NCBI GenBank assembly: GCA_028015205.1
Contig: CM051512.1
Span: 18,817,139-18,881,138 of the forward strand
Direction: 5' to 3'
Length of the DNA: 64,000 nucleotides
Origin: Mytilisepta virgata
Lineage: Eukaryota; Mollusca; Bivalvia; Mytilida; Mytilidae
The translations under genes and the position numbers were made by a program. Shown piece after piece: positions 1,410 to 29,700 of the stretch. How positions within the stretch are numbered: position 1 is the stretch's first letter; each line of letters begins with the position of its first letter. A model generated the notes under the pieces. That model was given only the letters and a program-made list of their open reading frames with translations, was not told the origin of the DNA and searched no databases.

Positions 1410-1415
1410 GATGTG
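1410..1415. repeat. Left target-site duplication GATGTG
   Basis: GATGTG abuts the left end of the palindrome (AGTAGTATATGAGGAC...). The same six bases abut the right end at 17348-17353. Outside these six bases the flanks are unrelated, which is the pattern of a single insertion. A 9-bp reading (ACTGATGTG on both sides) is possible if the right terminus is set three bases further in. Confidence 0.75.
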
Positions 1416-1436
1416 AGTAGTATATGAGGACAGGCA

Positions 1437-1745
1437 AATTAGCATTTGTGGTGGTGGGTGTGGTGGAGGTGCTGTGGAGGTGCCGGAAGTGACGTCACCG
1501 GAACCGGAAATGACGTCACAGGAAGTGACATAACCGGAACCGGAAGTCACGTGACCAGAACCGGATGTACCGGAAGTGATTTGCGCGCATGCGCAACCGG
1601 AAGTAGTGGTTTTTTCCGCCATTTGTTTACGGAAGTGACGTAAGTCACGTGCTAGGACCCGGATGTGTGGTCTGCGCATGTTCAGGCGGAACCGGAAGCA
1701 CCAGGAAGTGGTTTGCGCGCATGCGCAACCCGAAGTGATGGGTTT
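1437..1745 (+). promoter_or_regulatory. ETS/CRE/NRF1-like motif array in left terminal repeat
   Basis: CCGGAAGTG (ETS/GABPA-like) recurs many times. TGACGTCA (CRE-like) occurs at 1490 and 1511, CACGTG at 1646, and the palindrome TGCGCGCATGCGCA (NRF1-like) at 1582 and 1714. CCGCCATTTG near 1617 resembles a YY1 site. These motifs are typical of CpG-rich animal promoters. Their density here suggests a terminal promoter or enhancer for the element. That role is inferred; only the motifs are seen. Confidence 0.55.
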
Positions 1746-1769
1746 TCTCCATTAACAGAAGTCCAAAGA

Positions 1770-1960
1770 GAGCTCCTCCAAGGGGAGATAACCCTGTAAA
1801 TGGGGAGATAACTTTCCAGTACCATATTTTCCTCCTCCAACAAGGGGGAGGTAACTTTCCAGGACTTTTCCCATATTCTCCTCCATTAATACAAGGGGAG
1901 ATAATTTTCTAGGATTTTTCCCATATTCCCCCTTCATTAATTCAAGGGGGAGATAATTTT
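1770..1960 (+). repeat. AGGGGAGATAA-type degenerate tandem repeat, left arm
   Basis: About five imperfect copies of a unit containing CAAGGGGGAGATAA and CCATATTCCTCC are spaced 35-60 bp apart. The mirrored block lies at 16685-16865. No function is apparent. The open frames across it on the minus strand come from the repeat. Confidence 0.6.
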
Positions 1961-2380
1961 TCCTTTAATCTATATATTTACTTTTAAACTTTTTCTTCTT
2001 CTGTTTTATTATTTTATAATTTTTCTTAGTTTTCTTAATTCATTTTTTAAATTTTATTATTATTTTTTTTTTTTGTTAATTTTTTTAATATATTTACATA
2101 ATTTTATTTTCTTTTTTTATTTTCTTTTTTTTTTATCATTATTATTATTTAATTTTTTATTATGTTTTTAAATTTTTTAATTTTTCTTAATTTTTCTTAA
2201 TTTTTTTATTATTTAATTTTTTATTTTTTTATAATTTTTTTGAATATATTTACATAATTTAATAATTTTTCTTAATTTTTTTTAACAAGTAATATATTTA
2301 CATAATTTTTCTAATTTTAATTCCTTTTTTTGTTTTGGTTTTGGAACAATTTAGTAAACAAATTATAATTATTTTAACTA
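1961..2380. other. AT-rich low-complexity spacer, left arm
   Basis: Almost pure A/T sequence of T-runs with TTAATTTTT-like motifs, between the terminal repeat block and the polymerase promoter. Mirrored at about 16265-16680. I see nothing else in it. Confidence 0.7.
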
Positions 2381-2699
2381 TTTTCTGGGTTTTCGCCAAC
2401 ATTCGGGTGTTTTCGCCAACATTCGGAACAATTTTTTACCCTTCGTGAATGTTCGGTCGTTTCCGGAGGGCTGCTGACTTACAGGTCCGCGTTCGTGGAG
2501 GCATCCATGTTGGATCCCGTTAATGTGACGTCATGGAAATTTTCAGTGGAAATTTCCATTAGAAAACGGATTGAAACATGTCGGGGAACGCGGCCGTTAG
2601 CGAAGACACCTTGGGTGCTCTCTTTTACGTCCGCGTTCTGGCTATATATACAGTGCAGAACCTCTCATTTCGTCTTGAACCTTTGATAAGGTAACAACC
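2381..2699 (+). promoter_or_regulatory. Polymerase gene promoter, left arm
   Basis: A duplicated TTTTCGCCAACATTCGG block (about 2391-2430) and a TGACGTCA at 2526 precede GGCTATATATACAG at about 2640. That is a good TATA box roughly 50 bp before the ATG at 2700. The mirrored copy keeps the TATA box (about 15996-16004). The 11-mer AGGTCCGCGTT near 2484 recurs inverted near 8717 on the inner side of the gene, which may mark the ends of an ancestral unit. Confidence 0.6.
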
Positions 2700-5600
2700 A
2701 TGTTCTCTTGTGAGAAATGCGGTAAGACTTTTACCGAGAAGAGAAGCCTGCTTCGCCACCAGAAGACCCATGCTGCTTCGTCTCAGACGTATTCCTGCCA
2801 GGTATGTGGAAAGGAGTTTGCCAGGGCCGACAACCGGAAACGCCACCAGGAGTCCCACCAGCAGATTGAGCCTGGAAAGCCGGATCCAGTCCAGTCCCTT
2901 GCCTGCCAGGTATGTGGAAAGGAATTTGCCAGGCCGGATGCCAGGAAGCGCCACGAAGCTACCCACCACCAGCAGAGTGAGCCTGGAAAGCCAGATCCAG
3001 TCCAGTCCTTTGCGTGCCAGGTCTGTGGAAAGGAGTTTGCCAGGGCCGACACCAGGAATCGCCACCAGGAGTCCCACAGGTACAGGGTGACGTGTCCAGA
3101 CTGTGGGCAGTACTTCAACAGATTGGACAGTTTAGCTCGCCACAGATTGTTGCATACCAAGCCAGATGCCAAGCCCAGGATGAAGAAACCAGTCAAGAGA
3201 CCAGCCTCGCCACTACCTGGCCCCAGTGCAAAAAGACGCAGGACAGTGTCGCCACCTGAGAGTCCAGCCAGTCCATCTCAAGCTGACGTTTTGCCAGAAG
3301 ATCCCGATACCAGGGTTTTGTACCTGAGACACTGGCAGTCCATCCGGACAGAAGAAAATACCGGCAACCGTGTCCAGGATCGGTTCAACTTTACGTTGAA
3401 CGAGATTACAACCGCCACCTTTCCTGACATGGTTCGCCACATTTTCGAACTCCAGACCACGACCTTCAAGATCAACGTGTCGTTTGGATTTGTACTGAGG
3501 AACGTAGAGACCGGAGAACTGAGATACTTCCATTCCACCCAGAACAACGCCCGATTTTTCGACGTACCACACCTGATTAGGAATGAAGAAGACCTAGAGA
3601 AGTTTTTGGAAGAATTGAGCCGTCACGACATTTTGGAGTTTATCCGGCAGCAGAGACCCGATACCAAATGGGTGGTGCATTTACTGACAAATGCCACGTT
3701 TTATGTCAACAAGTTGGTGGAACACCCGATAGGAGCCAGAGTCGTGTAACCAGACTTCTTCCTAAGGAACAAAGGCTTGGTGTGCTTGGTTGCTGGATCC
3801 CATGGGCCATATGATGACAACCTGTGTTTTTTCCGGTGTTTGGCCGTCCACCGTAGTTTTGTAGTAACAGACGTAGAAGTACCTGCCAAGACTTACTATC
3901 GTCAATATTTGGAGAAGACAGAAATGTCCGGCGGTGATTTCAAAGGTATTTGTTTAGACGATTTGGCGTACATCGAACCACTGTTCCAAGTCAACATCTG
4001 TGTGTACGATTTGCAAGAGACGGAAGACGGCGACATAGCGGCGAGATTGGTACGACGTTCCCCTTACAGTTTTCAGGACACCATGAACCTGAATTTGTAT
4101 GAAAACCATTTCAGTTATGTCAGCGACATGGAGAAATACAGTCACAGCTACCTATGTTCCAAATGTGACCAGATGTGGAAGCATGTAGGGCACTTACACA
4201 GACACGAGAGAACCTGCACCGGTGAAGTCCTGTACAAATATCCCGGCGGGGTGTACCACAGACCGTGTTTGAACGTTTGGAGGACGAAGGTATCCAAGTC
4301 CCGGAAGAAGGCAGATATTACCCTTACAGAGCCACTTACGATATAGAGGCGATGCTTCAACCTACAGAAAAACCAAGATCTGAAAAATTGGAATGGACCA
4401 GCCAGCACGTTTTGCTCAGCGTCTCCGTGTGTTCCAACGTACCGGAGTTTACAGAGCCAATTTGTTTCGTGTCCGAAGGCGATAGCAGTGAAACCGTGGA
4501 TTCCTGTTTGATCCATTTGACAGAAATTAGTGACAAAGCCTTTCGCTTACTGATGCCCAGGTATGCTGGTGTCTTTGAAGAGATCCAAGAGAGACTGGAC
4601 CGGGACCTGGAAGAATACCAAGACGACGAAGAGCGAGAACGCCAGGAAAAGAAACATCACCTGTACAAGTTGAAGCAGCAACTGGAACGACATCTCCAAG
4701 AATTACCCGTGATTGGCTTCAACACCGGGAAATACGACGTGAACGCCATGAAGATAGATTTCTTCACTCGTCTGGTGGAAAGTCACAAGATAAAGTATAC
4801 CGTGAAACACAACAACAATTTCATGTGCATCAAGACGGAGAAGTTGAAATTTTTGGACATCACCAACTACCTGGCTCCCGGATTTAGTTACTCCCAGTTT
4901 TTGAAAGCCTACGGCTGTACGGAAGAGAAAGGATTTTTTCCATACGAGTGGATGACCGGTTTAGACAAGTTGGCAGTGACGGAGTTACTACCACACCAGG
5001 CATTTTTCAGTACACTGAAAAACGAGAACATTGCACCCGAAGAGTACCAGCTGTATCGCCAAGTCTGGCAGGAAAAGAACATGAAGAACATGAAAGAGTT
5101 CCTGATATGGTACAACAACAAAGACGTGGAGCCCATGCTGGAAGCCATCGAGAAGATGTTTGTATATTACAAGGGATTGAAGGTGGACATGTTTAAACAC
5201 GGCATCAGCGTACCGGGACTCACACTGAAAACCATGTTCGATGGTCTGTCTGATTATTTCACCGTACCGGACGAGAAGAATAAAGATCTGTACGAGTTGT
5301 ACAAAGAAAACATAGTGGGTGGACCCAGCATCGTCTTCCACAGATACCACGAGAAAGACCAGACCTTCATCCGTCCTGCCGAATACCAAGTATTATGCAG
5401 GATATGCCAACGGGTCACTTCATCCGTCGCAAGAGCCAGGAAGATTTTAAAAGACAGACACCTCGAAGGTACGAACGGATGGCTATCGAGTGGTTGGAAT
5501 GGAAGGCCCAGGAGACAGGACACCACATACGTCACCAAGGGAACGATACGGAAAAACTGATAGGACGTCCGCGCCTTCCCGTGGATAGTTACTGTAAGGA

Positions 5601-7038
5601 TACTAATACAGTTTACGAGTTCCAGGGCTGCCTGTGGCACGGACATTGTTGTCGCCTGACTCGGGGAAAGACAGAAAACCCGTTGAACGGAAAGAGCCTG
5701 GATGAATTATACAAGACTACACAGGAAAAAATACAGTACATAACAGAAAACGACTACCAAGTGAAACAGATGTGGGAGTGCGAATGGGACCGGTTAAAGA
5801 AAGAAGACCAAGGAATCAAGACCTTCGTGTCTCAGAGGCAGAGACCCTGCGATCGTTTCGCCGCGATGACCGAAGACGACATCATGAGAGCCGTGATGGA
5901 GGACAAGTTGTTTGCTGCCTTGGAAGTGGACCTGCACGTACCTGAGGACCTAAAGGCAAAATTTGCAGAAATGCCTCCAGTGTTTAAGAACGTAGACGTG
6001 TCCAGAGACGACATTGGGGACCACATGAAGAGTTATGCAGAAGAAAAAGGAATCATGCCGCAGCCTAGAAAGTCGTTAATCGGCAGCATGTTTGGAGAGA
6101 AGATCATGGTAATATCCCCGTTGCTGAAATGGTACGTCAACCACGGACTGAAAGTCACCAGGATTTACCAGGTGGTGGAGTACACGCCGTCGGCGTGTTT
6201 CAGTCCCTTCGGAGATCAAGTCAGTAATGCCAGGCGAGCCGGAGATGCCGACCCAAATAAAAAGATAATTGCAGAAAACGAGAAACTGAGGGGAAATTCT
6301 AGCTACGGCAAGACGGTGACCAACAAGGAAAGGCACACGGATGTGATTTACTGCCAGGAACACCAGATCAGTCGCTACCTCGTAGATCCCTCTTTCCGGC
6401 GGTGCAACCAGCTGAGTGACAAAACGTTCGAAGTGGAAATGAGTAAAAAGACCATACACCTGGACCTGCCCATGCACATTGGCTGTTTCGTTTACCAGTA
6501 CGCCAAGCTTCGGATGTTGGAATTTTATTACGATTTTATGGACGTCTTTGTCGATCGCCGTGATTTTCAGTATTGTGCAATGGACACCGACAGTGCCTAC
6601 ATGGCTCTCTCTGGCGACAGTTTGGAGGAAGTGATCAAACCGCAGTTGCGTCGGCGCTTTGAAGCAGAGAAGAAGAATTGGTTTCCCCGTACTGACACAC
6701 CACAACTGACTGCTTGGGACAAGAGGACTCCAGGACTGTTCAAGACAGAATTCAGTGGTGACGGGATGATTGCCTTGTGTAGCAAGACGTACTTTTGCTT
6801 TGGAGACGAAACCAAGTACAGCTGTAAAGGGGTCAACAAGAGAACCAACGACATCAACAAAGAAAAATACATGGACGTTCTCCTGTCAAAGAACTCTGGC
6901 TCCGGAACCAACAGAGGGTTTCGTTCTGTAGACAACCAAGTCTACACCTACTTGCAAGAGCGAGCTGGCTTTTCCTACTTTTATCCAAAACGTAAAGTTT
7001 TGGCGGACGGGGTGTCCACGACACCCTTAGATATTTAA
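2700..7038 (+). pseudogene. C2H2 / peptidase-like / family B DNA polymerase, left copy, broken
   Basis: The ATG at 2700 opens five C2H2 fingers (to about 3157; repeated CQVCGKEFAR) and a basic KKPVKR...KRRR stretch. A region follows with YDDNLCFFRC (about 3811) and YENHFSYV (about 4100), like the Cys/His segments of OTU-type peptidases, then a CxxC...H...C knuckle near 4150. Exonuclease motifs follow: TYDIEAML (about 4337), GFNTGKYDVN (about 4710) and YNNKDVEPML (about 5110). A nuclease-like insert has VDSYC...VYEFQGCLWHGH (about 5581-5645). Polymerase motif B is RGNSSYGK (about 6286) and motif C is CAMDTDSAYM (about 6575). Lesions relative to the right copy are a T-to-A nonsense change ending the first frame at 3749, a 7-bp deletion near 4258, and a 58-bp deletion at about 5390 that removes motif A and shifts the frame. 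The intact length would be near 1,470 codons. Family B polymerase identity is firm; the peptidase and nuclease roles are inferred from motifs. Confidence 0.85.
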
Positions 7039-7134
7039 TCGGATGAACGGCTTACCGACTCGACTGATTACAGTGGGAAAGCTTTTCATTTGATGTATGA
7101 ACAGACCACTCTTTTTAGAGTCGTCTGTTAACCG

Positions 7135-7240
7135 ATAACAAAAAAAAAAGAAAAAAAAAGAAAAAAAAGAAAAAAAAAAAAAAGAAAAAAAGAAAAAAAA
7201 ATATAAAAAAAAGAAAAAAAAAGAAAAAGAAAAAAAGAAC
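7135..7240. repeat. A-rich simple repeat after the polymerase gene
   Basis: Runs of 5-13 A separated by single G or T follow the polymerase stop codon by about 100 bp. The mirrored T-rich tract is at about 11350-11462 and is longer. It could be a relic of a poly(A) tail or a replication-slippage tract. Confidence 0.8.
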
Positions 7241-7411
7241 TAGGTACCTGGTAACAGGGGCTCAACCCACAGAGCTGCCTAGCGCGTCCCCCAGGTGGCG
7301 GATAGGGGATGCCCTCTCGTTGAGGGTTGTCAGGTCGTTAAAAGCCTGACCGCGGACCATAGTGGGTAAAGTGTTTGGAGAACCATGTTTTATCAAAAAT
7401 AATTATAAAAT
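7241..7411 (+). other. GC-rich structured spacer, left arm
   Basis: A non-coding block from GGTACCTGGTAACAGGGG to AGTGTTTGGAGAACCATG separates the A-rich tract from the minisatellite. It can form several helices: GGGG with CCCC, CTCAAC with GTTGAG, GCT-GCCT-AGC, and AGGG-GATG-CCCT. The mirrored block at about 11180-11343 differs by only a few bases. Its compact GC-rich nature resembles the 5' end of a non-LTR retroelement or a structured RNA. I do not recognise it further. Confidence 0.45.
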
Positions 7412-8640
7412 TTGTTAAATTTATTTGTTGCTCTTTGCTGCTCGCCGCTGTTTTTCTCCTGCTCTTTGTTGCTCATCGCTGTTTTTCTCTTGCTCTTTGT
7501 TGCTCATCGCTGTTTTTCTCTTGCTCTTCTCTTGTTCATCGCTAATTTTCTCTTGCTCTTTGCTGCTCGTCGCTGTTTTTCTCTTGCTCTTTGTTGCTCA
7601 TCGCTAATTTTCTCTTGTTCTTTGCTGCTCATCGCTGTTTTTCTCTTGCTCTTTGCTGAGAAGTCGCTGTTTTTCTCTTGCTCTTTGTTGCTTATCGCTG
7701 TTTTTGTCTTGCTCTTTGTTGCTCATCGTTGTGTTTCTCTTGCTCTTCTCTTGCTCATCGCTGTTTTTCTCTTCCTCTTTGCTGCTCGTCGCTGTTTTTC
7801 TCTTGCTCTTTGTTGCTCATCGCTGTTTTTCTCTTGATCTTTGTTGCTCATCGCTGTGTTTCTCTTGCTATTCTCTTGCTCATCGCTGTTTTTCTTTTGC
7901 TCTTTGCTGCTCGTCGCTGTTTTTCTCTTGCTCTTTGTTGCTCATCGCTGTTTTTCTCTTGCTCTTTGCTGCTCATCGCTGTTTTTCTCTTGCTCTTTGT
8001 TGCTCATCGCTGTTTTTCTCTTGCTCTTTGCTGCTCATCGCTGTTTATCTCTTGCTCTTTGTTGCTCGTCGCTGTTTTTCTCTTGTTCTTTACTGCTCAT
8101 CGCTGTGTTTCTCTTGTTCTTTACTGCTCACCACTGTTTTTCTCTTGCTCTTCTCTTGCTCATCGCTGTTTTTCTCTTGGTTTTTTGTTGCTCATCGCTC
8201 TTTTTCTCTTGCTCTTTGTTGCTCATCGCTGTTTTTCTCTTGCTCTTTGTTGCTCATCGCTAATCATGACCTTACTCACGTGCTCATTTCAGTTTTTTGG
8301 GGGGCTACTTGTCACTGTTTTCGCAGCTGTTTCTGCTCCTGCTGCTTGTTGCTGTTCGTCATTGCTTATCTTCTCTTGCTCTTTGCTGTTCATCTCTACT
8401 CAGGACCTTACTCGCGTGCTCATTTCGGTTTTCTTGTGCTACTTATCGCTGTTTTCGCTGCTGTTCTCTTGCTCATCGCTGTTTTTCTCTTGCTCTTTAT
8501 TGCTCATCGCTACTCATGATTATACTCACGTGCTCATTTCGGTTTTTTGGGGGCTACTTGTCAATGTTTTCACTGCTGCTGCTGCTCCTGGCTGTGGTCG
8601 CTGTTCGTTGCTGCTGCTGCTGAGGAGGTGAAGGTGGGAT
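7412..8640 (+). repeat. 31-bp minisatellite and CTG-rich tail, left arm
   Basis: The unit TGCTCATCGCTGTTTTTCTC followed by TTGCTCTTTGT (31 bp) repeats with few changes to about 8265. It then degenerates into blocks with ACTCACGTGCTCATTTCGG and a CTG-rich end. Because 31 is not a multiple of three and the + strand lacks stops, all three + frames stay open and each gives the same hydrophobic Cys-rich repeat. I treat these frames as non-genic. The mirrored array is at 9680-11168. Confidence 0.85.
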
Positions 8641-8795
8641 TCTCACCGTTTTGTTATGAACCACCTCTTGGTCTCGTTGATGTTACGATGGACATCAAGA
8701 TGGCTGCGCCCATGTAACGCGGACCTGAAAGAAAGCACCCTAATGAAACGGAAATTTTAGAGTCTTTCCGGCCGTTAACGAACGTTTACGGATTT
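8641..8795. other. Inner unique segment, left arm
   Basis: A short non-repetitive block contains AAGATGGCTGC (YY1-like) near 8697, AACGCGGACCT near 8717 and CCGGCCGTTAACG. The 11-mer is the inverse of AGGTCCGCGTT in the polymerase promoter, so the gene plus minisatellite is bounded by small inverted sequences. Mirrored at 9506-9660. Confidence 0.5.
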
Positions 8796-9063
8796 CAGTC
8801 CTAACCCTAACTCCAGTCCTAACCCCAACCCTAATCCTAACCCTACCCTAATCCCTAACTAACCCTAAACCTAACTTAACCATAACCCTAACCCTAACTC
8901 TAACTCTAACACTAACTCTAACCCTGACCCTAACCTAACTTAACACTAAACCTAACCCTAGTTCTAACCCTAACACTAACTCTAACCCTATCCTAATCCT
9001 AACCCTAACCCTAGTTCTAACCCTAACCTTAACTCTAACCCTAACCGTAGTCCTGTCTCTAAC
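8796..9063 (+). repeat. Degenerate telomere-like CCCTAA array, left of centre
   Basis: Dozens of CCCTAA-type units are mixed with CTCTAA, CACTAA, CCTAAT and CCTTAA variants. The G-rich strand points away from the centre of the palindrome. A fused pair of chromosome ends would show the opposite order. The variants and the mirror-image copy show it is part of the element. Confidence 0.9.
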
Positions 9064-9238
9064 CCTTATCGTGGGTCTGTCTCGCACTCCTGCTCTAACC
9101 GCTCATACCCCACCGTCGGTGGTTCACTGGTGCAAGCGTGACAAACATGAGGCAAACAGTCACGCTTGCACCAGTGAACCACCGACGGTGGGGTATGAGC
9201 GGTTAGAGCAGGAGTGCGAGACAGACCCACGATAAGGG
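9063..9238. repeat. Central hairpin: 80-bp perfect arms, 16-nt loop
   Basis: The left arm (ending TGCAAGCGTGAC at 9142) and the right arm (starting GTCACGCTTGCA at 9159) are perfect reverse complements for 80 bp. They flank the loop AAACATGAGGCAAACA. Beyond the arms the palindrome continues through the telomere-like arrays. The absence of mismatches, compared with scattered differences elsewhere, could reflect recent hairpin-based replication or repair. Confidence 0.9.
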
Positions 9239-9505
9239 TTAGAGACAGGACTACGGTTAGGGTTAGAGTTAAGGTTAGGGTTAGAACTAGGGTTAGGGTT
9301 AGGATTAGGGTAGGGTTAGAGTTAGTATTAGGGTTAGAACTAGGGTTAGGTTCAGTGTTAAGTTAGGTTAGGGTCAGGGTTAGAGTTAGTGTTAGAGTTA
9401 GAGTTAGGGTTAGGGTTATGGTTAAGTTAGGTTTAGGGTTAGTTAGGGATTAGGGTAGGGTTAGGATTAGAGTTGGGGTTAGGACTGGAGTTAGGGTTAA
9501 GACTA
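9238..9505 (-). repeat. Degenerate telomere-like TTAGGG array, right of centre
   Basis: Mirror image of the array at 8796-9063, with the same order of variant units (TTAGAG, TTAGTG, TTAGAAC). One or two single-unit differences between the arms are visible. Confidence 0.9.
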
Positions 9506-9679
9506 AAATCCGTAAACGTTCGTTAACGGCCGGAAAGACTCTAAAATTTCCGTTTCATTAGGGTGCTTTCTTTCAGGTCCGCGTTACATGGGCGCAGCCA
9601 TCTTGATGTCCATCGTAACATCAACGAGACCAAGAAGTGGTTCATAACAAAACGGTGAGAATCCCACCTTCACCTCCTC
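9506..9679. other. Inner unique segment, right arm
   Basis: Mirror of 8641-8795, containing GCAGCCATCTT and AGGTCCGCGTT. It ends at the (CAG)n run that starts the right minisatellite; this run is longer than in the left arm. No gene is seen. Confidence 0.5.
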
Positions 9680-11168
9680 AGCAGCAGCAGCAGCAGCAGC
9701 AGCAACGAACAGCGACCATAGCCAGGAGCAGCAGCAGCAGTAAAAACATTGACAAGTAGCCCCCAAAAAACCGAAATGAGCACGTGAGTATAATCATGAG
9801 TAGCGATGAGCAATAAAGAGCAAGAGAAAAACAGCGATGAGCAAGAGAACAGCAGCGAAGACAGCGATAAGTAGCACAAGAAAACCGAAATGAGCACGCG
9901 AGTAAGGTCCTGAGTAGAGATGAACAGCAAAGAGCAAGAGAAGATAAGCAATGACGAACAGCAACAAGCAGCAGGAGCAGAAACAGCTGCGAAAACAGTG
10001 ACAAGTAGCCCCCCAAAAAACTGAAATGAGCACGTGAGTAAGGTCATGATTAGCGATGAGCAACAAAGAGCAAGAGAAAAACAGCGATGAGCAACAAAGA
10101 GCAAGAGAAAAAGAGCGATGAGCAACAAAAAACCAAGAGAAAAACAGCGATGAGCAAGAGAAGAGCAAGAGAAAAACAGTGGTGAGCAGTAAAGAACAAG
10201 AGAAACACAGCGATGAGCAGTAAAGAACAAGAGAAAAACAGCGACGAGCAACAAAGAGCAAGAGAAAAACAGCGATGAGCAGCAAAGAGCAAGAGAAAAA
10301 CAGCGATGAGCAACAAAGAGCAAGAGAAAAACAGCGATGAGCAACAAAGAGCAAGAGAAAAACAGCGATGAGCAACAAAGAGCAAGAGAAAAACAGTGAC
10401 GAGCAGCAAAGAGCAAGAGAAAAACAGCGATGAGCAAGAGAATAGCAAGAGAAACACAGCGATGAACAACAAAGATCAAGAGAAAAACAGCGACGAGCAA
10501 CAAAGAGCAAGAGAAAAACAGCGATGAGCAGCAAAGAGCAAGAGAAAAACAGCGATGAGCAACAAAGAGCAAGAGAAAAACAGCGATGAGCAGCAAAGAG
10601 CAAGAGAAAAACAGCGATGAGCAACAAAGAGCAAGAGAAAAACAGTGACGAGCAGCAAAGAGCAAGAGAAAAACAGCGATGAGCAAGAGAATAGCAAGAG
10701 AAACACAGCGATGAACAACAAAGATCAAGAGAAAAACAGCGATGAGCAACAAAGAGCAAGAGAAAAACAGCGACGAGCAGCAACGAGGAAGAGAAAAACA
10801 GCGATGAGCAAGAGAAGAGCAAGAGAAACACAACGATGAGCAACAAAGAGCAAGACAAAAACAGCGATAAGCAACAAAGAGCAAGAGAAAAACAGCGACT
10901 TCTCAGCAAAGAGCAAGAGAAAAACAGCGATGAGCAGCAAAGAACAAGAGAAAATTAGCGATGAGCAACAAAGAGCAAGAGAAAAACAGCGACGAGCAGC
11001 AAAGAGCAAGAGAAAAACAGCGATGAGCAGCAAAGAGCAAGAGAAAATTAGCGATGAACAAGAGAAGAGCAAGAGAAAAACAGCGATGAGCAACAAAGAG
11101 CAAGAGAAAAACAGCGATGAGCAACAAAGAGCAAGAGAAAAACAGCGGAGAGCAGCAAAGAGCAAATA
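9680..11168 (-). repeat. 31-bp minisatellite and CAG-rich tail, right arm
   Basis: Reverse complement of the left array, with units AGCGATGAGCAACAAAGAGC plus AAGAGAAAAAC. It is longer than the left array. An identical block of about 249 bp (eight units) appears twice in succession, at about 10472 and 10721. The long open frames on the minus strand are products of the repeat. Confidence 0.85.
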
Positions 11169-11462
11169 ACTTTAACAAATTTTATAATTATTTTTGATAA
11201 AACATGGTTCTCCAAACACTTTACCCACTATGGTCCGCGGTCAGGCTTTTAACGACCTGACAACCCTCAACGAGAGGGCATCCCCTATCCGCCAGCTGGG
11301 GGACGCGCTAGGCAGCTCTGTGGGTTGAGCCCCTGTTACCAGGTACCTAGTTCTTTTTTTTCTTTTTCTTTTTTTTCTTTTTTTTTATATTTTTTTTTCT
11401 TTTTTTTTTCTTTTTTTTATATTTTTTTTTCTTTTTTTTTTCTTTTTTTTTTTTTTTTTTTG
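11169..11462 (-). other. GC-rich structured spacer and T-rich tract, right arm
   Basis: Mirror of 7135-7411. The GC-rich block differs from the left one by about one base in the CCCCCAG-G/C-TGGCGG segment. The T-rich tract (about 11350-11462) is expanded and interrupted by TTTATATTT twice. Confidence 0.6.
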
Positions 11463-11562
11463 TTATCGGTTAACAGACGACTCTAAAAAGAGTGGTCTGT
11501 TCATACATCAAATGAAAAGCTTTCCCACTGTAATCAGTCGAGTCGGTAAGCCGTTCATCCGA

Positions 11563-14500
11563 TTAAATATCTAAGGGTGTCGTGGACACCCTGTCCGCCA
11601 AAACTTTACGTTTTGGATAAAAGTAGGAAAAGCCAGCTCGCTCTTGCAAGTAGGTGTAGACTTGGTTGTCTACAGAACGAAACCCTCTGTTGGTTCCGGA
11701 GCCAGAGTTCTTTGACAGGAGAACGTCCATGTATTTTTCTTTGTTGATGTCGTTGATTCTCTTGTTGACCCCTTTACAGCTGTACTTGGTTTCGTCTCCA
11801 AAGCAAAAGTACGTCTTGCTACACAAGGCAATCATCCCGTCACCACTGAATTCTGTCTTGAACAGTCCTGGAGTCCTTTTGTCCCAAGCAGCCAGTTGTG
11901 GTGTGTCAGTACGGGGAAACCAATTCTTCTTCTCTGCTTCAAAGCGCCGACGCAACTGCGGTTTGATCACTTCCTCCAAACTGTCGCCAGAGAGAGCCAT
12001 GTAGGCACTGTCGGTGTCCATTGCACAATACTGAAAATCACGGCGATCGACAAAGACGTCCATAAAATCGTAATATAATTCCAACATCCGAAGCTTGGCG
12101 TACTGGTAAACGAAACAGCCAATGTGCATGGGCAGGTCCAGGTGTATGGTCTTTTTACTCATTTCCACTTCGAACGTTTTGTCACTCAGCTGGTTGCACC
12201 GCCGGAAAGAGGGATCTACGGGGTAGCGACTGATCTGGTGTTCCTGGCAGTAAATCACATCCGTGTGCCTTTCCTTGTTGGTCACCGTCTTGTCGTAGCT
12301 AGAATTTCCCCTCAGTTTCTCGTTTTCTGCAATTATCTTTTTATTTGGGTCGGCATCTCCGGCTCGCCTGGCATTACTGACTTGATCTCCGAAGGGACTG
12401 AAACACGCCGACGGCGTGTACTCCACCACCTGGTAAATCCTGGTGACTTTCAGTCCGTGGTTGACGTACCATTTCAGCAACGGGGATATTACCATGATCT
12501 TCTCTCCAAACATGCTGCCGATTAACGACTTTCTAGGCTGCGGCATGATTCCTTTTTCTTCTGCATAACTCTTCATTTGGTCCCCAATGTCGTCTCTGGA
12601 CACGTCTACGTTCTTAAACACTGGAGGCATTTCTGCAAATTTTGCCTTTAGGTCCTCTTCCAAGGCAGCAAACAACTTGTCCTCCATCACGGCTCTCATG
12701 ATGTCGTCTTCGGTCATCGTGGCGAAACGATCGCAGGGTCTCTGCCTCTGAGACACGAAGGTCTTGATTCCTTGGTCTTCTTTCTTTAACCGGTCCCATT
12801 CGCACTCCCACATCTGTTTCACTTGGTAGTCGTTTTCTGTTATGTACTGTATTTTTTCCTGTGTAGTCTTGTATAATTCATCCAGGCTCTTTCCGTTCAA
12901 CGGGTTTTCTGTCTTTCCCCGAGTCAGGCGACAACAATGTCCGTGCCACAGGCAGTCCTGGAACTCGTAAACTGTATTAGTATCCTTACAGTAACCATCC
13001 AAGGGAAGGCGCCGACGTCCTATCAGTTTTTCCGTATCGTTCCCTTGGTGACGTATGTGGTGTCCTGTCTCCTGGGCCTCCCATTCCAACCACTCGATAG
13101 TCATCCGTTCTTACCTTCGAGGTGTCTGTCTTTTAAAATCTTCCTGGCTCTTGCGACGGACGAAGTGACCCGTTGGCATATCCTGCATAATACTCCACAA
13201 ATACAAGGCATTGGCGTCCACACCGTAGATCTTCTTGCACGGTTTTGGGTCTTGGTATTCGGCAGGACGGATGAAGGTCTGGTCTTTCTCGTGGTATCTG
13301 TGGAAGACGATGCTGGGTCCACCCACTATGTTTTCTTTGTACAACTCGTACAGATCTTTATTCTTCTCGTCCGGTACGGTGAAATAATCAGACAGACCAT
13401 CGAACATGGTTTTCAGTGTGAGTCCCGGTACGCTGATGCCGTGTTTAGACATGTCCACCTTCAATCCCTTGTAATATACAAACATCTTCTCGATGGCTTC
13501 CAGCATGGGCTCCACGTCTTTGTTGTTGTACCATATCAGGAACTCTTTCATGTTCTTCATGTTCTTTTCCTGCCAGACTTGGCGACACAGCTGGTACTCT
13601 TCGGGTGCAATGTTCTCGTTTTTCAGTGTACTGAAAAATGCCTGGTGTGGTGGTAACTCCGTCACTGCCAACTTGTCTAAACCGGTCATCCACTCGTATG
13701 GAAAAAATCCTTTCTCTTCCGTACAGTCGTAGGCTTTCAAAAACTGGGAGTAACTAAATCCGGGAGCCAGGTAGTTGGTGATGTCCAAAAATTTCAACTT
13801 CTCCGTCTTGATGCACATGAAATTGTTGTTGCGTTTCACGGTATACTTTATCTTGTGACTTTCCACCAGACGAGTGAAGAAATCTATCTTCATGGCGTTC
13901 ACGTCGTACTTCCCGGTGTTGAAGCCAATCACGGGTAATTCTTGGAGATGTAGTTCCAGTTGCTGCTTCAACTTGTACAGGTGATGTTTCTTTTCCTGGC
14001 GTTCTCGCTCTTCGTCGTCTTGGTATTCTTCCAGGTCCCGGTCCAGTCTCTCTTGGATCTCTTCAAAGACACCAGCATACCTGGGCATCAGTAAGCGAAA
14101 GGCTTTGTCACTAATTTCTGTCAAATGGATCAAACAGGAATCCACGGTTTCACTGCTATCGCCTTCGGACACGAAACAAATTGGCTCTGTAAACTCCGGT
14201 ACGTTGGAACACACGGAGACGCTGAGCAAAACGTGCTGGCTGGTCCATTCCAATTTTTCAGATCTTGGTTTTTCTGTAGGTTGAAGCATCGCCTCTATAT
14301 CGTAAGTGGCTCTGTAAGGGTAATATCTGCCTTCTTCCGGGACATGGATACCTTCGTCCTCCAAACGTTCAAACACGGTCTGTGGTGTATGGTACACCCC
14401 GCCGGGATATTTGTACAGGACTTCACCGGTGCAGGTTCTCTCGTGTCTGTGTAAGTGCCCTACATGCTTCCACATCTGGTCACATTTGGAACATAGGTAG

Positions 14501-15946
14501 CTGTGACTGTATTTCTCCATGTCGCTGACATAACTGAAATGGTTTTCATACAAATTCAGGTCCATAGTGTCCTGAAAACTGTAAGGGGAACGTCGTACCA
14601 ATCTCGCCGCTATGTCGCCGTCTTCCGTCTCTTGCAAATCGTACACACAGATGTTGACTTGGAACAGTGGTTCGATGTACGCCAAATCGTCTAAACAAAT
14701 ACCTTTGAAATCACCGCCGGACATTTCTGTCTTCTCCAAATATTGACGATAGTAAGTCTTGGCAGGTACTTCTACGTCTGTTACTACAAAACCACGGTGG
14801 ACGGCCAAACACCGGAAAAAACACAGGTTGTCATCATATGGCCCATGGGATCCAGCAACCAAGCACACCAAGCCTTTGTTCCTTAGGAAGAAGTCTGGTA
14901 ACACGACTCTGGCTCCTATCGGGTGTTCCACCAACTTGTTGACATAAAACGTGGCATTTGTCAGTAAATGCACCACCCATTTGGTATCGGGTCTCTGCTG
15001 CCGGATAAACTCCAAAATGTCGTGACGGCTCAATTCTTCCAAAAACTTCTCTAGGTCTTCTTCATTCCTAATCAGGTGTGGTACGTCGAAAAATCGGGCG
15101 TTGTTCTGGGTGGAATGGAAGTATCTCAGTTCTCCGGTCTCTACGTTCCTCAGTACAAATCCAAACGACACGTTGATCTTGAAGGTCGTGGTCTGGAGTT
15201 CGAAAATGTGGCGAACCATGTCAGGAAAGGTGGCGGTTGTAATCTCGTTCAACGTAAAGTTGAACCGATCCTGGACACGGTTGCCGGTATTTTCTTCTGT
15301 CCGGATGGACTGCCAGTGTCTCAGGTACAAAACCCTGGTATCGGGATCTTCTGGCAAAACGTCAGCTTGAGATGGACTGGCTGGACTCTCAGGTGGCGAC
15401 ACTGTCCTGCGTCTTTTTGCACTGGGGCCAGGTAGTGGCGAGGCTGGTCTCTTGACTGGTTTCTTCATCCTGGGCTTGGCATCTGGCTTGGTATGCAACA
15501 ATCTGTGGCGAGCTAAACTGTCCAATCTGTTGAAGTACTGCCCACAGTCTGGACACGTCACCCTGTACCTGTGGGACTCCTGGTGGCGATTCCTGGTGTC
15601 GGCCCTGGCAAACTCCTTTCCACAGACCTGGCACGCAAAGGACTGGACTGGATCTGGCTTTCCAGGCTCACTCTGCTGGTGGTGGGTAGCTTCGTGGCGC
15701 TTCCTGGCATCCGGCCTGGCAAATTCCTTTCCACATACCTGGCAGGCAAGGGACTGGACTGGATCCGGCTTTCCAGGCTCAATCTGCTGGTGGGACTCCT
15801 GGTGGCGTTTCCGGTTGTCGACCCTGGCAAACTCCTTTCCACATACCTGGCAGGAATACGTCTGAGACGAAGCAGCATGGGTCTTCTGGTGGCTAAGCAG
15901 GCTTCTCTTCTCGGTAAGTCTTACCGCATTTCTCACAAGAGAACAT
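11563..15946 (-). pseudogene. C2H2 / peptidase-like / family B DNA polymerase, right copy, broken
   Basis: Same gene as at 2700-7038, read on the minus strand from the ATG at 15946 to a stop at 11563. It keeps polymerase motif A (GVDANALYLW, about 13230-13200), which the left copy lost. A 2-bp deletion in the first zinc finger shifts the frame just after the ATG, so the remaining frame opens from another ATG at 15936. A TAC-to-TAA change ends this frame near 13110. The next frame (13104-11563) covers the nuclease-like insert and motifs B and C. An 18-bp in-frame deletion lies near 12650. The glycine of motif B (NSSYGK in the left copy) is aspartate here, which should harm nucleotide binding. 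Convergent with the left copy; an identical promoter lies upstream. Confidence 0.85.
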
Positions 15947-16265
15947 GGTTGTTACCTTATCAAAGGTTCAAGACGAAATGAGAGGTTCTGCACTGTATAT
16001 ATAGCCAGAACGCGGACGTAAAAGAGAGCACCCAAGGTGTCTTCGCTCACGGCCGCGTTCCCCGACATGTTTCAATCCGTTTTCTAATGGAAATTTCCAC
16101 TGAAAATTTCCATGACGTCACATTAACGGGATCCAACATGGATGCCTCCACGATCGCGGACCTGTAAGTCAGCACCCCTCCGGAAACGACCGAACATTCA
16201 CGAAGGGTAAAAAATTGTTCCGAATGTTGGCGAAAACACCCGAATGTTGGCGAAAACCCAGAAAA
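15947..16265 (-). promoter_or_regulatory. Polymerase gene promoter, right arm
   Basis: Mirror of the left promoter. It keeps the TATA box (TGTATATATAGCC, about 15995-16006), the TGACGTCA and the duplicated CCGAATGTTGGCGAAAA block. The few single-base differences do not touch the TATA box. Confidence 0.6.
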
Positions 16266-16904
16266 TAGTTAAAATAATTATAATTTGTTTACTAAATTGT
16301 TCCAAAACCAAAAAAAAAAGGAATTAAAATTAGAAAAATTATGTAAATATATTACTTGTTAAAAAAAATTAAGAAAAATTATTAAATTATGTAAATATAT
16401 TCAAAAAAATTATAAAAAATAAAAAATTAAATAATAAAAAAATTAAAAAAAATTAAGAAAAATTTAAAAATTTAAAAACATAATAAAAAATTAAATAATA
16501 ATAATGATAATAAAAAAAAGATAATAAAAAAAGAAAATAAAATTATGTAAATATATTAAAAAAATTAACAAAAAAAAATAATAATAAAATTTAAAAAATG
16601 AATTAAGAAAATTAAGAAAAATTATAAAATAATAAAACAGAAGAAGAAAAAGTTTAAAAGTAAATATATAGATTAAAGGAAAAATTATCTCCCCCTTGAA
16701 TTAATGAAGGGGGAATATGGGAAAAATCCTAGAAAATTATCTCCCCTTGTATTAATGGAGGAGAATATGGGAAAAGTCCTGGAAAGTTACCTCCCCCTTG
16801 TTGGAGGAGGAAAATATGGTACTGGAAAGTTATCTCCCCATTTACAGGGTTATCTCCCCTTGGAGGAGCTCTCTTTGGACTTCTGTTAATGGAGAAAACC
16901 CATC
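16266..16904. other. AT-rich spacer and AGGGGAGATAA repeats, right arm
   Basis: Mirror of 1770-2380: A/T-rich low-complexity DNA to about 16680, then TTATCTCCCC-containing repeats to about 16865. No gene. Confidence 0.7.
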
Positions 16905-17347
16905 ACTTCAGGTTGCGCATGCGCGCAAACCATTTCCTGGTGCTTCCGGTTCCGCCTGAACATACGCAGACCATATGTCCTGGTCCTGGCACGTGACTTA
17001 CGTCACTTCCGTAAATAAATGGCGGGAAAATCCATCACTTCCGGTTGCGCATGCGCGCAAAAATCACTTCCGGTTCCTGAACATGCGCAGACCACACATC
17101 CGGGTCCTAGCACGTGACTTACGTCACTTCCGTAAACAAATGGCGAAAAAAAACCACTACTTCCGGTTGCGCTTGCGCACAAATCACTTCCGGTACATCC
17201 TGTTCCGGTCACGTGTCTTCCGGTTCCGGTTACGTCACTTCCTGTGACGTCATTTCCGGTTCCGGTGACGTCACTTCCGGCACCTCCACAGCACATCCAC
17301 CACACCCACCACCACAAATGCTAATTTGCCTGTCCTCATATACTACT
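16905..17347 (-). promoter_or_regulatory. ETS/CRE/NRF1-like motif array in right terminal repeat
   Basis: Same motif set as the left end: TGCGCATGCGCGCA, CACTTCCGG, TGACGTCA, CACGTG and AAATGGCG. One unit of about 121 bp (from CAGACC at 16967 to CAGACC at 17088) is present once more than in the left terminus, so this block behaves as a small tandem repeat. Confidence 0.55.
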
Positions 17348-17353
17348 GATGTG
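17348..17353. repeat. Right target-site duplication GATGTG
   Basis: Direct copy of 1410-1415, immediately after the terminal ...CATATACTACT of the palindrome. Confidence 0.75.
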
Positions 17354-26819: not shown

Positions 26820-27900
26820 ATTTAATTTTATTTATTAAAATTTCAAACAAAGATGATACAAATCTTTAAGTAAATGAAATAACACTACTAAGGATGATAC
26901 AATACGGGCGTACATATAAATATATACAGATGACATTGCTGTGTAGCAGCAGCAACATTGGTACCAGGGTATGTGCTACTGCTACACCGCAAAGGATCTA
27001 GTACAAGACTTATTAATTATTATTTTTATATACATGTTGTGCTGAGAAAAATCTGTAAACTAAATTTTGTTTAATGTTAGTTTGATCTATGCTTCTACTA
27101 ATCCAGATTGAATAAGCATAAGCATAGATATACGGATAGAATTTTCTGTCGACATGAAATAAAACTGTGTTTGCATTTAGTGTAACCGTGTCTCCATTTA
27201 ATTCTTCTTTTATTATATTAGAAACGAAATTGCGATACTCGAATAAACTTTTACAATTTATGAACAAGTGTTCAAAAGTTTCAATTTCTACTTTACAAAA
27301 TGGACAAAAATAACTTGGAAGTTGTACGTTTCTTTTTTGTAGTTTTTGGTTTGTTGATAGACAGCGATGTACAACTTTATAAATAAAATCACGAACATAT
27401 AAGGGTTTAATCTCGGACAAATTTGTCCATATGTTATGAAAAGCTACGTGTGGAATTCTATTTCAATTTTGTGTTTATGATTTTCAAGATCAATAAGTTG
27501 TGTGTATATATCTTTAAAATCTTTTCCCACCAGGGTTAACTTGTTTTTATACTTAAGATACAAAAATTTGATTTTGGTATGAATACCTATGGTCTGTATA
27601 CTATGTTGTCGGTTATTGAAGGCTAACTCTGGTAATATCTCTCTCACTGTATATCCCACGAAATAGCAGAAAACTGCTGTCCAAGGTGATCTATTTCCTT
27701 TGGTTATTTCAGAAATTCTATGAAGAAGCATAGCTTCTATCTTTTTCTCAATATCAGATATCTTTTGGCCGCCATTACAAATTGGTCTTGTGAGAGATTT
27801 TCGCTGCAAATATTCAAATTTACCACCCCAAAAGAAGGCAAAAATATACCTATTGATTAATTTACTAAAAAATTCTGTTGGTGGAACAACTCTGGCCACA
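26820..27900 (-). pseudogene. LINE ORF2 C-terminal remnant
   Basis: Two minus frames (27899-27444 and 27420-27013) separated by a frame break together resemble the C-terminal third of a non-LTR reverse transcriptase. Signatures are FFWGG...RPICNGGQKISDIEKKIEAM, then VRDFIYKVVHRCLSTNQKL and the CPFC-x(8)-HLFINC knuckle. The catalytic YxDD core is absent. The 3' end is probably near 26820. Confidence 0.75.
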
Positions 27901-28569: not shown

Positions 28570-29700
28570 CAAAATTATGGCCCAGGGCATAGTTCAGTTT
28601 TGATTTGAGGATGTGGTGGATCATCCGGATATGACGTCACCGGAAGCGGGTCATATGACCGTAACCAGAGGTGCCCTGAAGTGACGTCAGTGTCGTCTGC
28701 GCATATGTAGGCGGAACAGGAAGTGGCTTGCAAGCAGGCGCAACCGGAAGAAGTGGATTTTCCTGCCATTTTTCCATTATTTGTTTATTGAAGTGACGTC
28801 AGGCACATGCTGTGACCCGGATATGCCATGCTTAACCGAAATTCGGATTGGGATATCTCCCCTTTTACCCCGCGCTTTTCATCCTCGGTCATATCTGGGT
28901 CTTTAATCGGTCTGTATAGGGTAAGGGTCTCGCATCGAGTCTCTAGGGACCGATACGCTCCATGTTAAGTCGAAGTCCGAGAGTATTCGAAGTACAGAGG
29001 GATGATTGGGTTATCTTCCCTTTTCCCGCGCTTTTCATTCGGGGTTTGTTTTCCGTTTGTTCAAGGGAAGTCCAACGGTAGGATTGGATTATGTCCCCTT
29101 ACCCCCGTTTCGGTTAATGCTGTTGCTGCTTTTCGCTTGCTCCATACTGCTAATTACTGTTCATCGCTGCTCTTCTCTTGCTCATCCCTGCTCTTCTCTT
29201 GCTCATCACTGCTCTTCTCTTACTCTTCGCTGCTCATCGTTGCTCTTCTCTTGTTCTTTGTTACTCTTCACTGCTCATTTCTTGCTCCGTACTACTCTTC
29301 TCTTGCTCCTTGTTACTCATCACTGCTCTTCTCTTGCTTCTCCCTTTCTCCATGCTGCTTCTTGCTGCTCATCGCTACTCATGACTATACTCACGAGCTT
29401 TCGTTTTCTTGGTGATACTGGTCGCTGTTTTCGCTGCTGCTGCTGCAGCTCCTGCTGCTTGTTGTTCGTCATCGCTGCTCGTCTCTTGCTCATCGCTGTT
29501 CATCTCTTGCTCCTTCCTTTCTCTATGCTGCTCATTGCTGCTTATCGCTACTCATGACTATACTCACGTGCTAATTTCGGATTTTTTTGTCTGCTTGTCG
29601 CTGTTTTCGCTGCTGCTGCTGGTCATGCTGCTTGTTGCTGTTCGTCATCACTGCTCTTCTCTTGCTCATCACTGATCTTCTCTTGCTCTGTGCTGCTCAG
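28570..29700 (+). mobile_element. Polymerase-less relative of the palindromic element
   Basis: At 28600-28830 lies a diverged copy of the terminal motif array: GACGTCACCGGAAG, GACGTCAGTG, GGCGGAACAGGAAGTGG, GCGCAACCGGAAG, TTGTTTATTGAAGTGACGTC. At 29130-29700 lies a diverged minisatellite (TGCTCATC-CTGCTCTTCTCT units) with ACTCATGACTATACTCACG and CTGCTGCTG blocks as in the left arm. The polymerase, TATA promoter, telomere-like array and second arm are missing. Frames across the minisatellite are spurious. It shows a family of such elements. Confidence 0.7.
28600..28830 (+). promoter_or_regulatory. Diverged ETS/CRE-like terminal motif array
   Basis: Contains two or three GACGTCA, repeated CCGGAAG/AGGAAGTGG, CATATGACC and TGCGCATATG. 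Relative to the array at 1437 the NRF1-like palindromes are decayed while the CRE-like cores are kept. Confidence 0.4.

What the first reader, a model, noticed from the sequence alone, without database searches (positions are those of the whole stretch)
1410..17353. A 15.9-kb near-perfect palindrome inserted as one unit with a 6-bp duplication
The whole element is an inverted duplication, yet the symmetry stops exactly at GATGTG on both sides while the outer flanks are unrelated. So the palindrome itself integrated; it was not made by a later local inversion. Termini are AG...CT. This suggests an element that replicates or integrates as a head-to-head dimer with a hairpin centre, a layout I cannot match to a named transposon class.
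Basis: partly seen in the sequence, partly recalled or inferred. Interest (0 to 1): 0.95.

Follow-up and report, generated by a model that had tools for sequence, protein, structure and literature searches.

The report
Palindromic derivative of a Maverick transposon
A 16-kb stretch of animal DNA that is its own mirror image turns out to be one of many copies of a mobile element in which the DNA-copying half of a virus-like Maverick transposon has been doubled head-to-head, so that each copied strand could fold back and serve as its own template.

Summary
In detail: arms 1416-9142 and 9159-17347 are 99.0% identical around a 16-nt loop, flanked by GATGTG/GATGTG. It is one of a family. In the same genome 16 of 19 further convergent PolB pairs have an exact 6-bp duplication outside AGT-AGT ends, as do 14 of 15 end pairs chosen by pattern. 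One copy splits a reverse-transcriptase frame that is continuous once the flanks are joined. Each arm codes a protein-primed PolB of Maverick/Polinton type, broken in this copy, so the class is nameable. Non-palindromic partners (PolB-PC4-integrase) sit in the same genome; one has the same ends and a 6-bp duplication. A listed integrase lies within 12 kb of 23 of 44 unpaired PolB hits and of 0 of 40 paired ones. A second palindrome type doubles a PC4/zinc half. Best reading: symmetric, integrase-less Maverick derivatives, copied by TP/PolB through a fold-back strand and integrated in trans. Insertion as a unit is shown; fold-back replication and trans-integration are inferred. Nine searches of the held library listed no such form. 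New variant of a known kind.

The parts
1410..1415 (.). left copy of the 6-bp target site duplication, GATGTG
   Evidence: sequence
17348..17353 (.). right copy of the 6-bp target site duplication, GATGTG
   Evidence: sequence
1416..9142 (+). left arm of the palindrome; begins AGTAGTATATGAGG (AGT twice)
   Evidence: 99.0% identical to the right arm
9143..9158 (.). 16-nt loop at the centre of symmetry
9159..17347 (-). right arm of the palindrome; ends ...CATATACTACT
2700..7038 (+). PolB gene of the left arm, pointing inward, broken into four frames (2700-3749, 3777-4346, 4265-5560, 5395-7038)
   Evidence: ORF list; C2H2 fingers in the first frame; near-identical to the right-arm gene
11563..15936 (-). 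PolB gene of the right arm, pointing inward, in two frames (13111-15936 and 11563-13104)
7428..8261 (.). 31-bp minisatellite, left arm
   Evidence: Tandem Repeats Finder
10052..11165 (.). 31-bp minisatellite, right arm
8800..9046 (.). degenerate (CCTAAC)n telomere-like tract, left of centre
9255..9499 (.). degenerate (GGTTAG)n tract, right of centre

Best explanation
The element is a symmetric, integrase-less derivative of a Maverick/Polinton. (1) SHOWN: the genome carries non-palindromic elements in which PolB is followed on the same strand by a PC4-like gene (8 of 8 held loci) and then a Maverick-type integrase (23 loci by coordinates); one (C3:13096861-13111571) is bounded by the same ends with a 6-bp duplication. 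(2) SHOWN by comparing those 8 loci with one palindrome (L008): the palindromic form shares only some 270-370 bp after the PolB stop, then has minisatellite, telomere-like tract and centre instead, and the PolB half follows again in mirror image. (3) INFERRED: it arose when a displaced strand that had lost one end folded back on itself and was extended, giving a head-to-head dimer with the AGT-AGT origin at both ends. (4) INFERRED: it replicates by protein priming with jumping back on AGT-AGT; the displaced strand of a palindrome folds into a roughly 7-kb hairpin with an origin at its open end, so one strand suffices to regenerate the whole, and the arms are made alike in each round. (5) SHOWN that it inserts as a unit with 6-bp duplications; INFERRED that the integrase comes in trans from the partners. 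A second palindrome type (PC4 and zinc proteins) is another half treated the same way.
Against: Replication and trans-integration were not observed. Gene conversion between arms after insertion could also keep them alike. In 7 of 8 pairs the centre is asymmetric and the asymmetry is shared between copies, so those palindromes are copied with their loop, not rebuilt from one arm alone. L061/L062 has the ends but no duplication, L045/L046 is offset by one base, L057/L058 lacks a recognisable left end. 21 of 44 unpaired PolB have no listed integrase within 12 kb. Two different copies, L028 and L030, are 99.8% identical, so between-copy distance is not always larger than within. Of the 100 ends listed, 64 have no facing partner within 20 kb in that list of perfect matches; only one of them (L074, 3 kb) was looked at. 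Palindromicity was not checked for most pattern-chosen pairs. Pfam-A does not recognise the window's polymerase pieces. The short element L071 has unlike ends.
Confidence: 0.75

Rival explanations
1. A multipartite system: the PolB palindrome and the PC4/zinc palindrome are stable cooperating segments, each self-folding, that depend on each other and on an integrase-bearing segment.
For: Two palindrome types share ends, minisatellite and centre sequence; the one PC4-type left end compared and the PolB copy at C5:8968937 are identical for their first 91 bases; both types have groups of copies with identical scores; one mixed PC4-arm/PolB-arm element exists.
Against: The partner already carries PolB, PC4 and integrase on one strand, so the palindromes may be mere parasites of it; no evidence of mutual need.
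Confidence: 0.2
2. The palindromes are copied as ordinary units, and the arms are kept alike by gene conversion after insertion.
For: Long inverted repeats convert readily (general knowledge); the asymmetric centre is inherited among copies; the C7 and C23 versions of one insertion have the interior in opposite orientation, as exchange between arms (or assembly) would give.
Against: In the window copy the arms have drifted by 78 substitutions and 16 indels without being levelled, and end blocks differ between copies but hardly between the two ends of a copy.
Confidence: 0.2
3. The palindromic PolB element is fully autonomous and integrates without a Maverick integrase, for instance through a Vsr-like endonuclease region in its polymerase.
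For: Weak Pfam Vsr hit (E 0.041, 14.2 bits against a cut-off of 27) in 5395-7038; no integrase-sized extra frame in the palindrome.
Against: 6-bp duplication and AGT-AGT ends are the Maverick signature; open integrase frames next to the same kind of polymerase sit in the genome.
Confidence: 0.08
4. Assembly artefact or later local inverted duplication.
For: One pair, C1:120317-135340, has reverse-complement host flanks, as such an artefact or duplication would give.
Against: Pairs with exact direct duplications have different flanks on the two sides; the reverse-transcriptase frame is interrupted precisely; 20 PolB and 66 PC4 pairs.
Confidence: 0.02

Closest known systems
Maverick/Polinton (vertebrate Mavericks, PMC8097293; polinton pPolB architecture, PMC11071308; passages seen)
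   Same: protein-primed PolB with phi29-like exonuclease and a vOTU-like region, (AGT)2//(ACT)2 ends, exact 6-bp duplications
   Different: no integrase or recognised capsid gene in the palindrome; inverted repeats make up nearly the whole element; PC4-like gene in the partner
Maverick on L108 (contig in a MAG of an Escarpia tubeworm symbiont, probably host DNA)
   Same: closest polymerase found with context: 42-46% identical PolB with C2H2 fingers, same-strand order PolB then integrase
   Different: ordinary layout with an ATPase-like frame, integrase, further frames and an adenovirus-type protease; no long inverted repeat in the contig, which is cut at its ends
Symmetric recombinant adenovirus genomes (recalled; one search listed no paper on them)
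   Same: head-to-head duplication of one end, with a protein-primed origin at both ends
   Different: sporadic defective virus genomes; here a large family inserted in a genome
pFOXC retroplasmids of Fusarium (PMC3035579, passages)
   Same: clothespin form: 5'-linked protein at one end, hairpin at the other
   Different: mitochondrial, reverse-transcriptase based, about 1.9 kb
Foldback elements such as Galileo and Tetris (PMC3688188, PMC4079207, search listing only)
   Same: very long inverted repeats; internal tandem repeats (recalled)
   Different: different enzymology; no protein-primed polymerase (recalled)

Membership tests
Maverick/Polinton | protein-primed family-B polymerase | tested here: met
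   Exonuclease part best matched by phi29 DNA polymerase; relatives carry PF03175 and L108 scores over its cut-off, though the window's own pieces do not; palm motifs DANALYLWS, NSSYG, MDTDS read by eye
Maverick/Polinton | TP and vOTU domains ahead of the exonuclease | tested here: inconclusive
   OTUD1 top Foldseek hit, prob 0.99 but E 0.013 and no hit at E 0.001; Cys372/His466 invariant; TP fold only consistent by secondary structure
Maverick/Polinton | 6-bp target site duplication | tested here: met
   window, 16 of 19 PolB pairs, 14 of 15 pattern-chosen pairs
Maverick/Polinton | (AGT)2//(ACT)2 or similar end motif | tested here: met
   compared with PMC8097293
Maverick/Polinton | retroviral-like integrase in the element | tested here: not met
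   no such frame of 150 aa or more in the window palindrome; 0 of 40 paired PolB within 12 kb of a listed integrase; present in partner elements
Maverick/Polinton | capsid, protease and packaging ATPase genes in the palindrome | tested here: not met
   frames of 150 aa or more in the palindrome are polymerase, minisatellite or antisense frames
Maverick/Polinton | capsid gene in the partner element | not tested
   the search did not complete
Maverick/Polinton | terminal inverted repeats of some 100-1000 bp (size recalled) | tested here: not met
   inverted repeat spans 7.7-8.2 kb per side
Foldback element | long inverted repeats containing tandem repeats (recalled) | tested here: met
   31-bp minisatellite in both arms
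Foldback element | foldback-type transposase | not tested
   no dedicated search was made; the only long genes are PolB

The most novel reading that the evidence does not exclude
This lineage of Mavericks has given up the ordinary two-ended virus genome for self-templating palindromes: each displaced strand snaps into a protein-capped hairpin that is its own second strand, and the PolB palindrome, the PC4/zinc palindrome and the integrase-bearing element spread as interdependent segments of one multipartite system in an animal genome.
Probability: 0.22. Interest if true: 0.95.

Novelty: new variant of a known kind. Interest (0 to 1): 0.85.

Why it matters
Protein-primed linear replicons are expected to throw off symmetric one-end duplications, but to my knowledge these are known as sporadic defective virus genomes. 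Here they are a multi-copy family with target duplications in an animal genome, with the polymerase under purifying selection, beside the integrase-bearing partner that could mobilise them. That gives a natural record of fold-back replication, possibly a built-in clock (arm divergence in each copy), and a partner/derivative pair for testing which Maverick parts are needed in cis and in trans.

Tried and rejected
Local inverted duplication and assembly artefact were rejected as general explanations; one pair, C1:120317-135340, keeps that signature. My first reading, that no integrase exists in the system, was wrong: PF00665 returned 150 scored of 3,168 candidates, by their long frames probably retroelements, and was uninformative; the integrase of L108 as query found it. 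The idea that unpaired PolB copies might be single arms was dropped for 23 of 44, which belong to PolB-integrase elements; the other 21 are unresolved. One search seemed to show arms of one copy less alike than arms of different copies; two searches showed that the differences lie mostly in the asymmetric centre, apart from some indel columns (L010/L011, L016/L025, L017/L018).

No relative was found in IMG/VR for PolB (45 pattern matches, none confirmed); for PC4 one weak locus, L107, not pursued. GTDB contigs gave none for PC4 and three for PolB, of which L109 was searched for inverted repeats only and L110 looks like a chimeric fragment. The C2H2 protein of the second palindrome type had no homologue at E 1e-3. 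PDB sequence search with the 513-aa piece gave two matches, E 0.6. Foldseek with the full 941-aa piece listed only zinc-finger structures. A search of the genome with the L108 frame that I take for the major capsid protein never got an answer, so whether the partner has a capsid gene is open. PF04665 gave 60 matches among 150 scored of 253 candidates (it also rings in 2 of 14 control genomes), which suggests packaging ATPases in this genome; they were not linked to these elements. Papers: nine searches listed no palindromic Maverick; passages of five papers were seen, none was read whole; most subscription papers are not held.
Full report
WHAT IS THERE. The palindrome is real at the given coordinates: arms 1416-9142 and 9159-17347 with a 16-nt loop; leaving out the six duplication columns, 7,620 of 7,698 ungapped columns are identical, with 16 indels of up to 249 nt. 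GATGTG lies directly outside both ends and the symmetry stops there. The ends are AGTAGTATATGAGG and its complement. Each arm holds, from the end inward: about 1.3 kb without a sense frame of 150 aa, a gene of some 4.3 kb pointing to the centre, a 31-bp minisatellite, a degenerate (CCTAAC)n tract and the centre. The gene is broken in both arms of this copy (four frames left, two right).

A FAMILY THAT INSERTS AS A UNIT. The window lies in a 1.03-Gb genome, contig C5. A search with one polymerase piece scored 84 of 859 candidates; 40 hits form 20 neighbouring pairs, all convergent, the window among them; 44 are unpaired in this capped list. I fetched the ends of the other 19 pairs. Both ends were found in 18; the 6-bp duplication is exact in 16, offset by one base in L045/L046, absent in L061/L062; L057/L058 has no recognisable left end. 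L041/L042 and L043/L044 are one insertion on two contigs. The end word AGTAGTATATGGGNACAG has 1,717 places against 5 for the control. Among the 100 places listed (perfect matches on C1-C3), neighbours closer than 20 kb are 18 facing pairs, 3 same-strand pairs and no back-to-back pair; 64 ends have no facing partner in the list. For 15 of the 18 facing pairs I read the flanks in short windows (one left end was already held): 14 have an exact 6-bp duplication; the fifteenth, C1:120317, has reverse-complement flanks. The other three were fetched whole: L073 has GTGATA on both sides, L071 and L072 differ by one base. In L047/L048 the element splits a reverse-transcriptase frame; the flanks joined minus one duplication give 278 open codons with RVT_1 at 3.1e-34 over residues 4-243, junction at 140.

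OTHER FORMS. A 14.6-kb element at C1:20461224 has the same kind of end (duplication CTTGCG) and a related centre, is 99% symmetric over the 2.3 kb around its centre, and carries a double PC4-domain protein (Pfam 1.4e-14) and zinc-finger-like frames pointing outward. The PC4 frame has 150 scored hits of 1,088 candidates; 66 of 66 neighbouring pairs are divergent, as such a palindrome requires, and 18 hits are unpaired. Its left end is identical to that of the PolB palindrome at C5:8968937 for 91 bases. The C2H2 frame has 150 scored hits of 2,229, with 34 of 35 neighbouring pairs divergent, and lies inside two shorter elements too. One locus, C13:45664161-45670855, joins a PC4 arm to a PolB arm.

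THE PARTNER. L108, an 11.8-kb contig in a MAG from a tubeworm symbiont (probably host DNA), is an ordinary Maverick with a 42-46% identical polymerase, an ATPase-like frame, an rve integrase with chromodomain and an adenovirus-type protease (below its Pfam cut-off); the capsid frames are my reading of position and size, as Pfam gave nothing for them. Its integrase as query scored 113 of 3,098 candidates in the window's genome. Of the 44 unpaired PolB hits, 23 have a listed integrase 3.13-3.45 kb downstream on the same strand and 21 have none within 12 kb; of the 40 paired hits none has one; chance would be about 0.003 per hit. Eight of the 23 loci were held: all share some 270-370 bp after the PolB stop with the palindrome L008 and then carry the PC4 frame, shortened in L026. 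The element at C3:13096861-13111571 has integrase, PC4 and PolB between AGT-AGT ends with duplication CGAACC; the pair at C2:5492604 (duplication CCAGAC) also holds an integrase hit. So the palindromic PolB element is the PolB half of this kind of element in mirror image.

ARMS AND CENTRE. Ends of 18 copies plus the window: mates are 97.8-100% identical over 815-1,000 columns, seven pairs at 100%; the best other copy is farther, except for the two versions of one insertion. In the first 3,000 columns of the polymerase loci the mates of 8 pairs differ at 0-2 columns, against 54-59 in three cross-copy comparisons; the window's mates differ much more, and L028 and L030, different copies, are 99.8% identical. 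The block at about bases 9-32 of the end differs among copies but agrees at both ends of each of these 19 palindromes apart from single substitutions; the short element L071 has unlike ends. In 7 of 8 pairs the symmetry ends at or near ...AACGTTTAC and an asymmetric centre follows: a one-sided telomere-like tract and a hairpin-forming stretch of about 105 nt (L009: DNA folding z-score -7.1, 0 of 200 shuffles as stable); copies share this asymmetry. The window, L002/L003 and the C1 element have the tract on both sides. The polymerase is under purifying selection (median dN/dS 0.089 over the 359 pairs of 28 loci with 15 or more substitutions; pairs not independent, window excluded). In a tree of 30 loci, palindromic (21) and partner (8) polymerases interleave: 4 changes of form, at least 2 forced by well-supported branches, no bootstrap tree with 1, though the bootstrap had not settled. 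Palindromes may have arisen more than once, reverted, or exchanged sequence with partners.

MECHANISM. The doubled AGT at the ends is taken in PMC8097293 (passages) as the jumping-back signal of protein-primed replication. In a palindrome the displaced strand can fold on itself, which gives a duplex with the origin at its open end; priming there and copying through the loop rebuilds the palindrome. This predicts near-identical arms, matching ends and tolerance of different loops, as seen. It does not exclude conversion between arms after insertion. Integration in trans follows from shared ends, a 6-bp duplication and absence of an integrase frame, but is inferred.

STANDING. By features it is a Maverick derivative that fails three usual features (integrase, capsid genes, short terminal repeats), so I call it a new variant and not a member in full.

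Noticed in passing
window 28600-29700: Relic with a block like the element's terminal region (about 74% over 110 columns) followed by a minisatellite related to the 31-bp one; probably a decayed short relative.
   Followed up: partly
window 59999-62113, minus strand: Fragments of another PolB (PF03175, E 5.9e-18 and 8.5e-10); the palindrome's polymerase pieces found no tblastn match there.
   Followed up: no
window 27013-27899, minus strand: Retroelement remnant; the frame at 27013-27420 has a zf-RVT domain.
   Followed up: no
L016/L025 (C7) and L017/L018 (C23): Same insertion and flanks on two contigs, but with the interior in opposite orientation: inversion between arms or an assembly ambiguity.
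   Followed up: partly
genome C1:120317-135340: Element whose host flanks are reverse complements of each other, unlike the 14 other pairs of that set.
   Followed up: no
L061/L062: Full ends but unrelated flanking hexamers; perhaps an exchange between two copies or a flank deletion.
   Followed up: no
window 8800-9046 and 9255-9499; centres of other copies: Degenerate telomere-like tracts, C-rich strand reading inward, opposite to what a telomere-telomere fusion would give. Unexplained.
   Followed up: partly
L110:2-1627: Contig of a Cohaesibacter MAG whose first frame runs from a PolB fragment into what looks like a bacterial aminotransferase: probably an assembly chimera.
   Followed up: no
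P0141: Double PC4 protein, 63% identical to the element's in alignment A3, annotated in a MAG named Candidatus Methanofishera; perhaps host DNA.
   Followed up: partly
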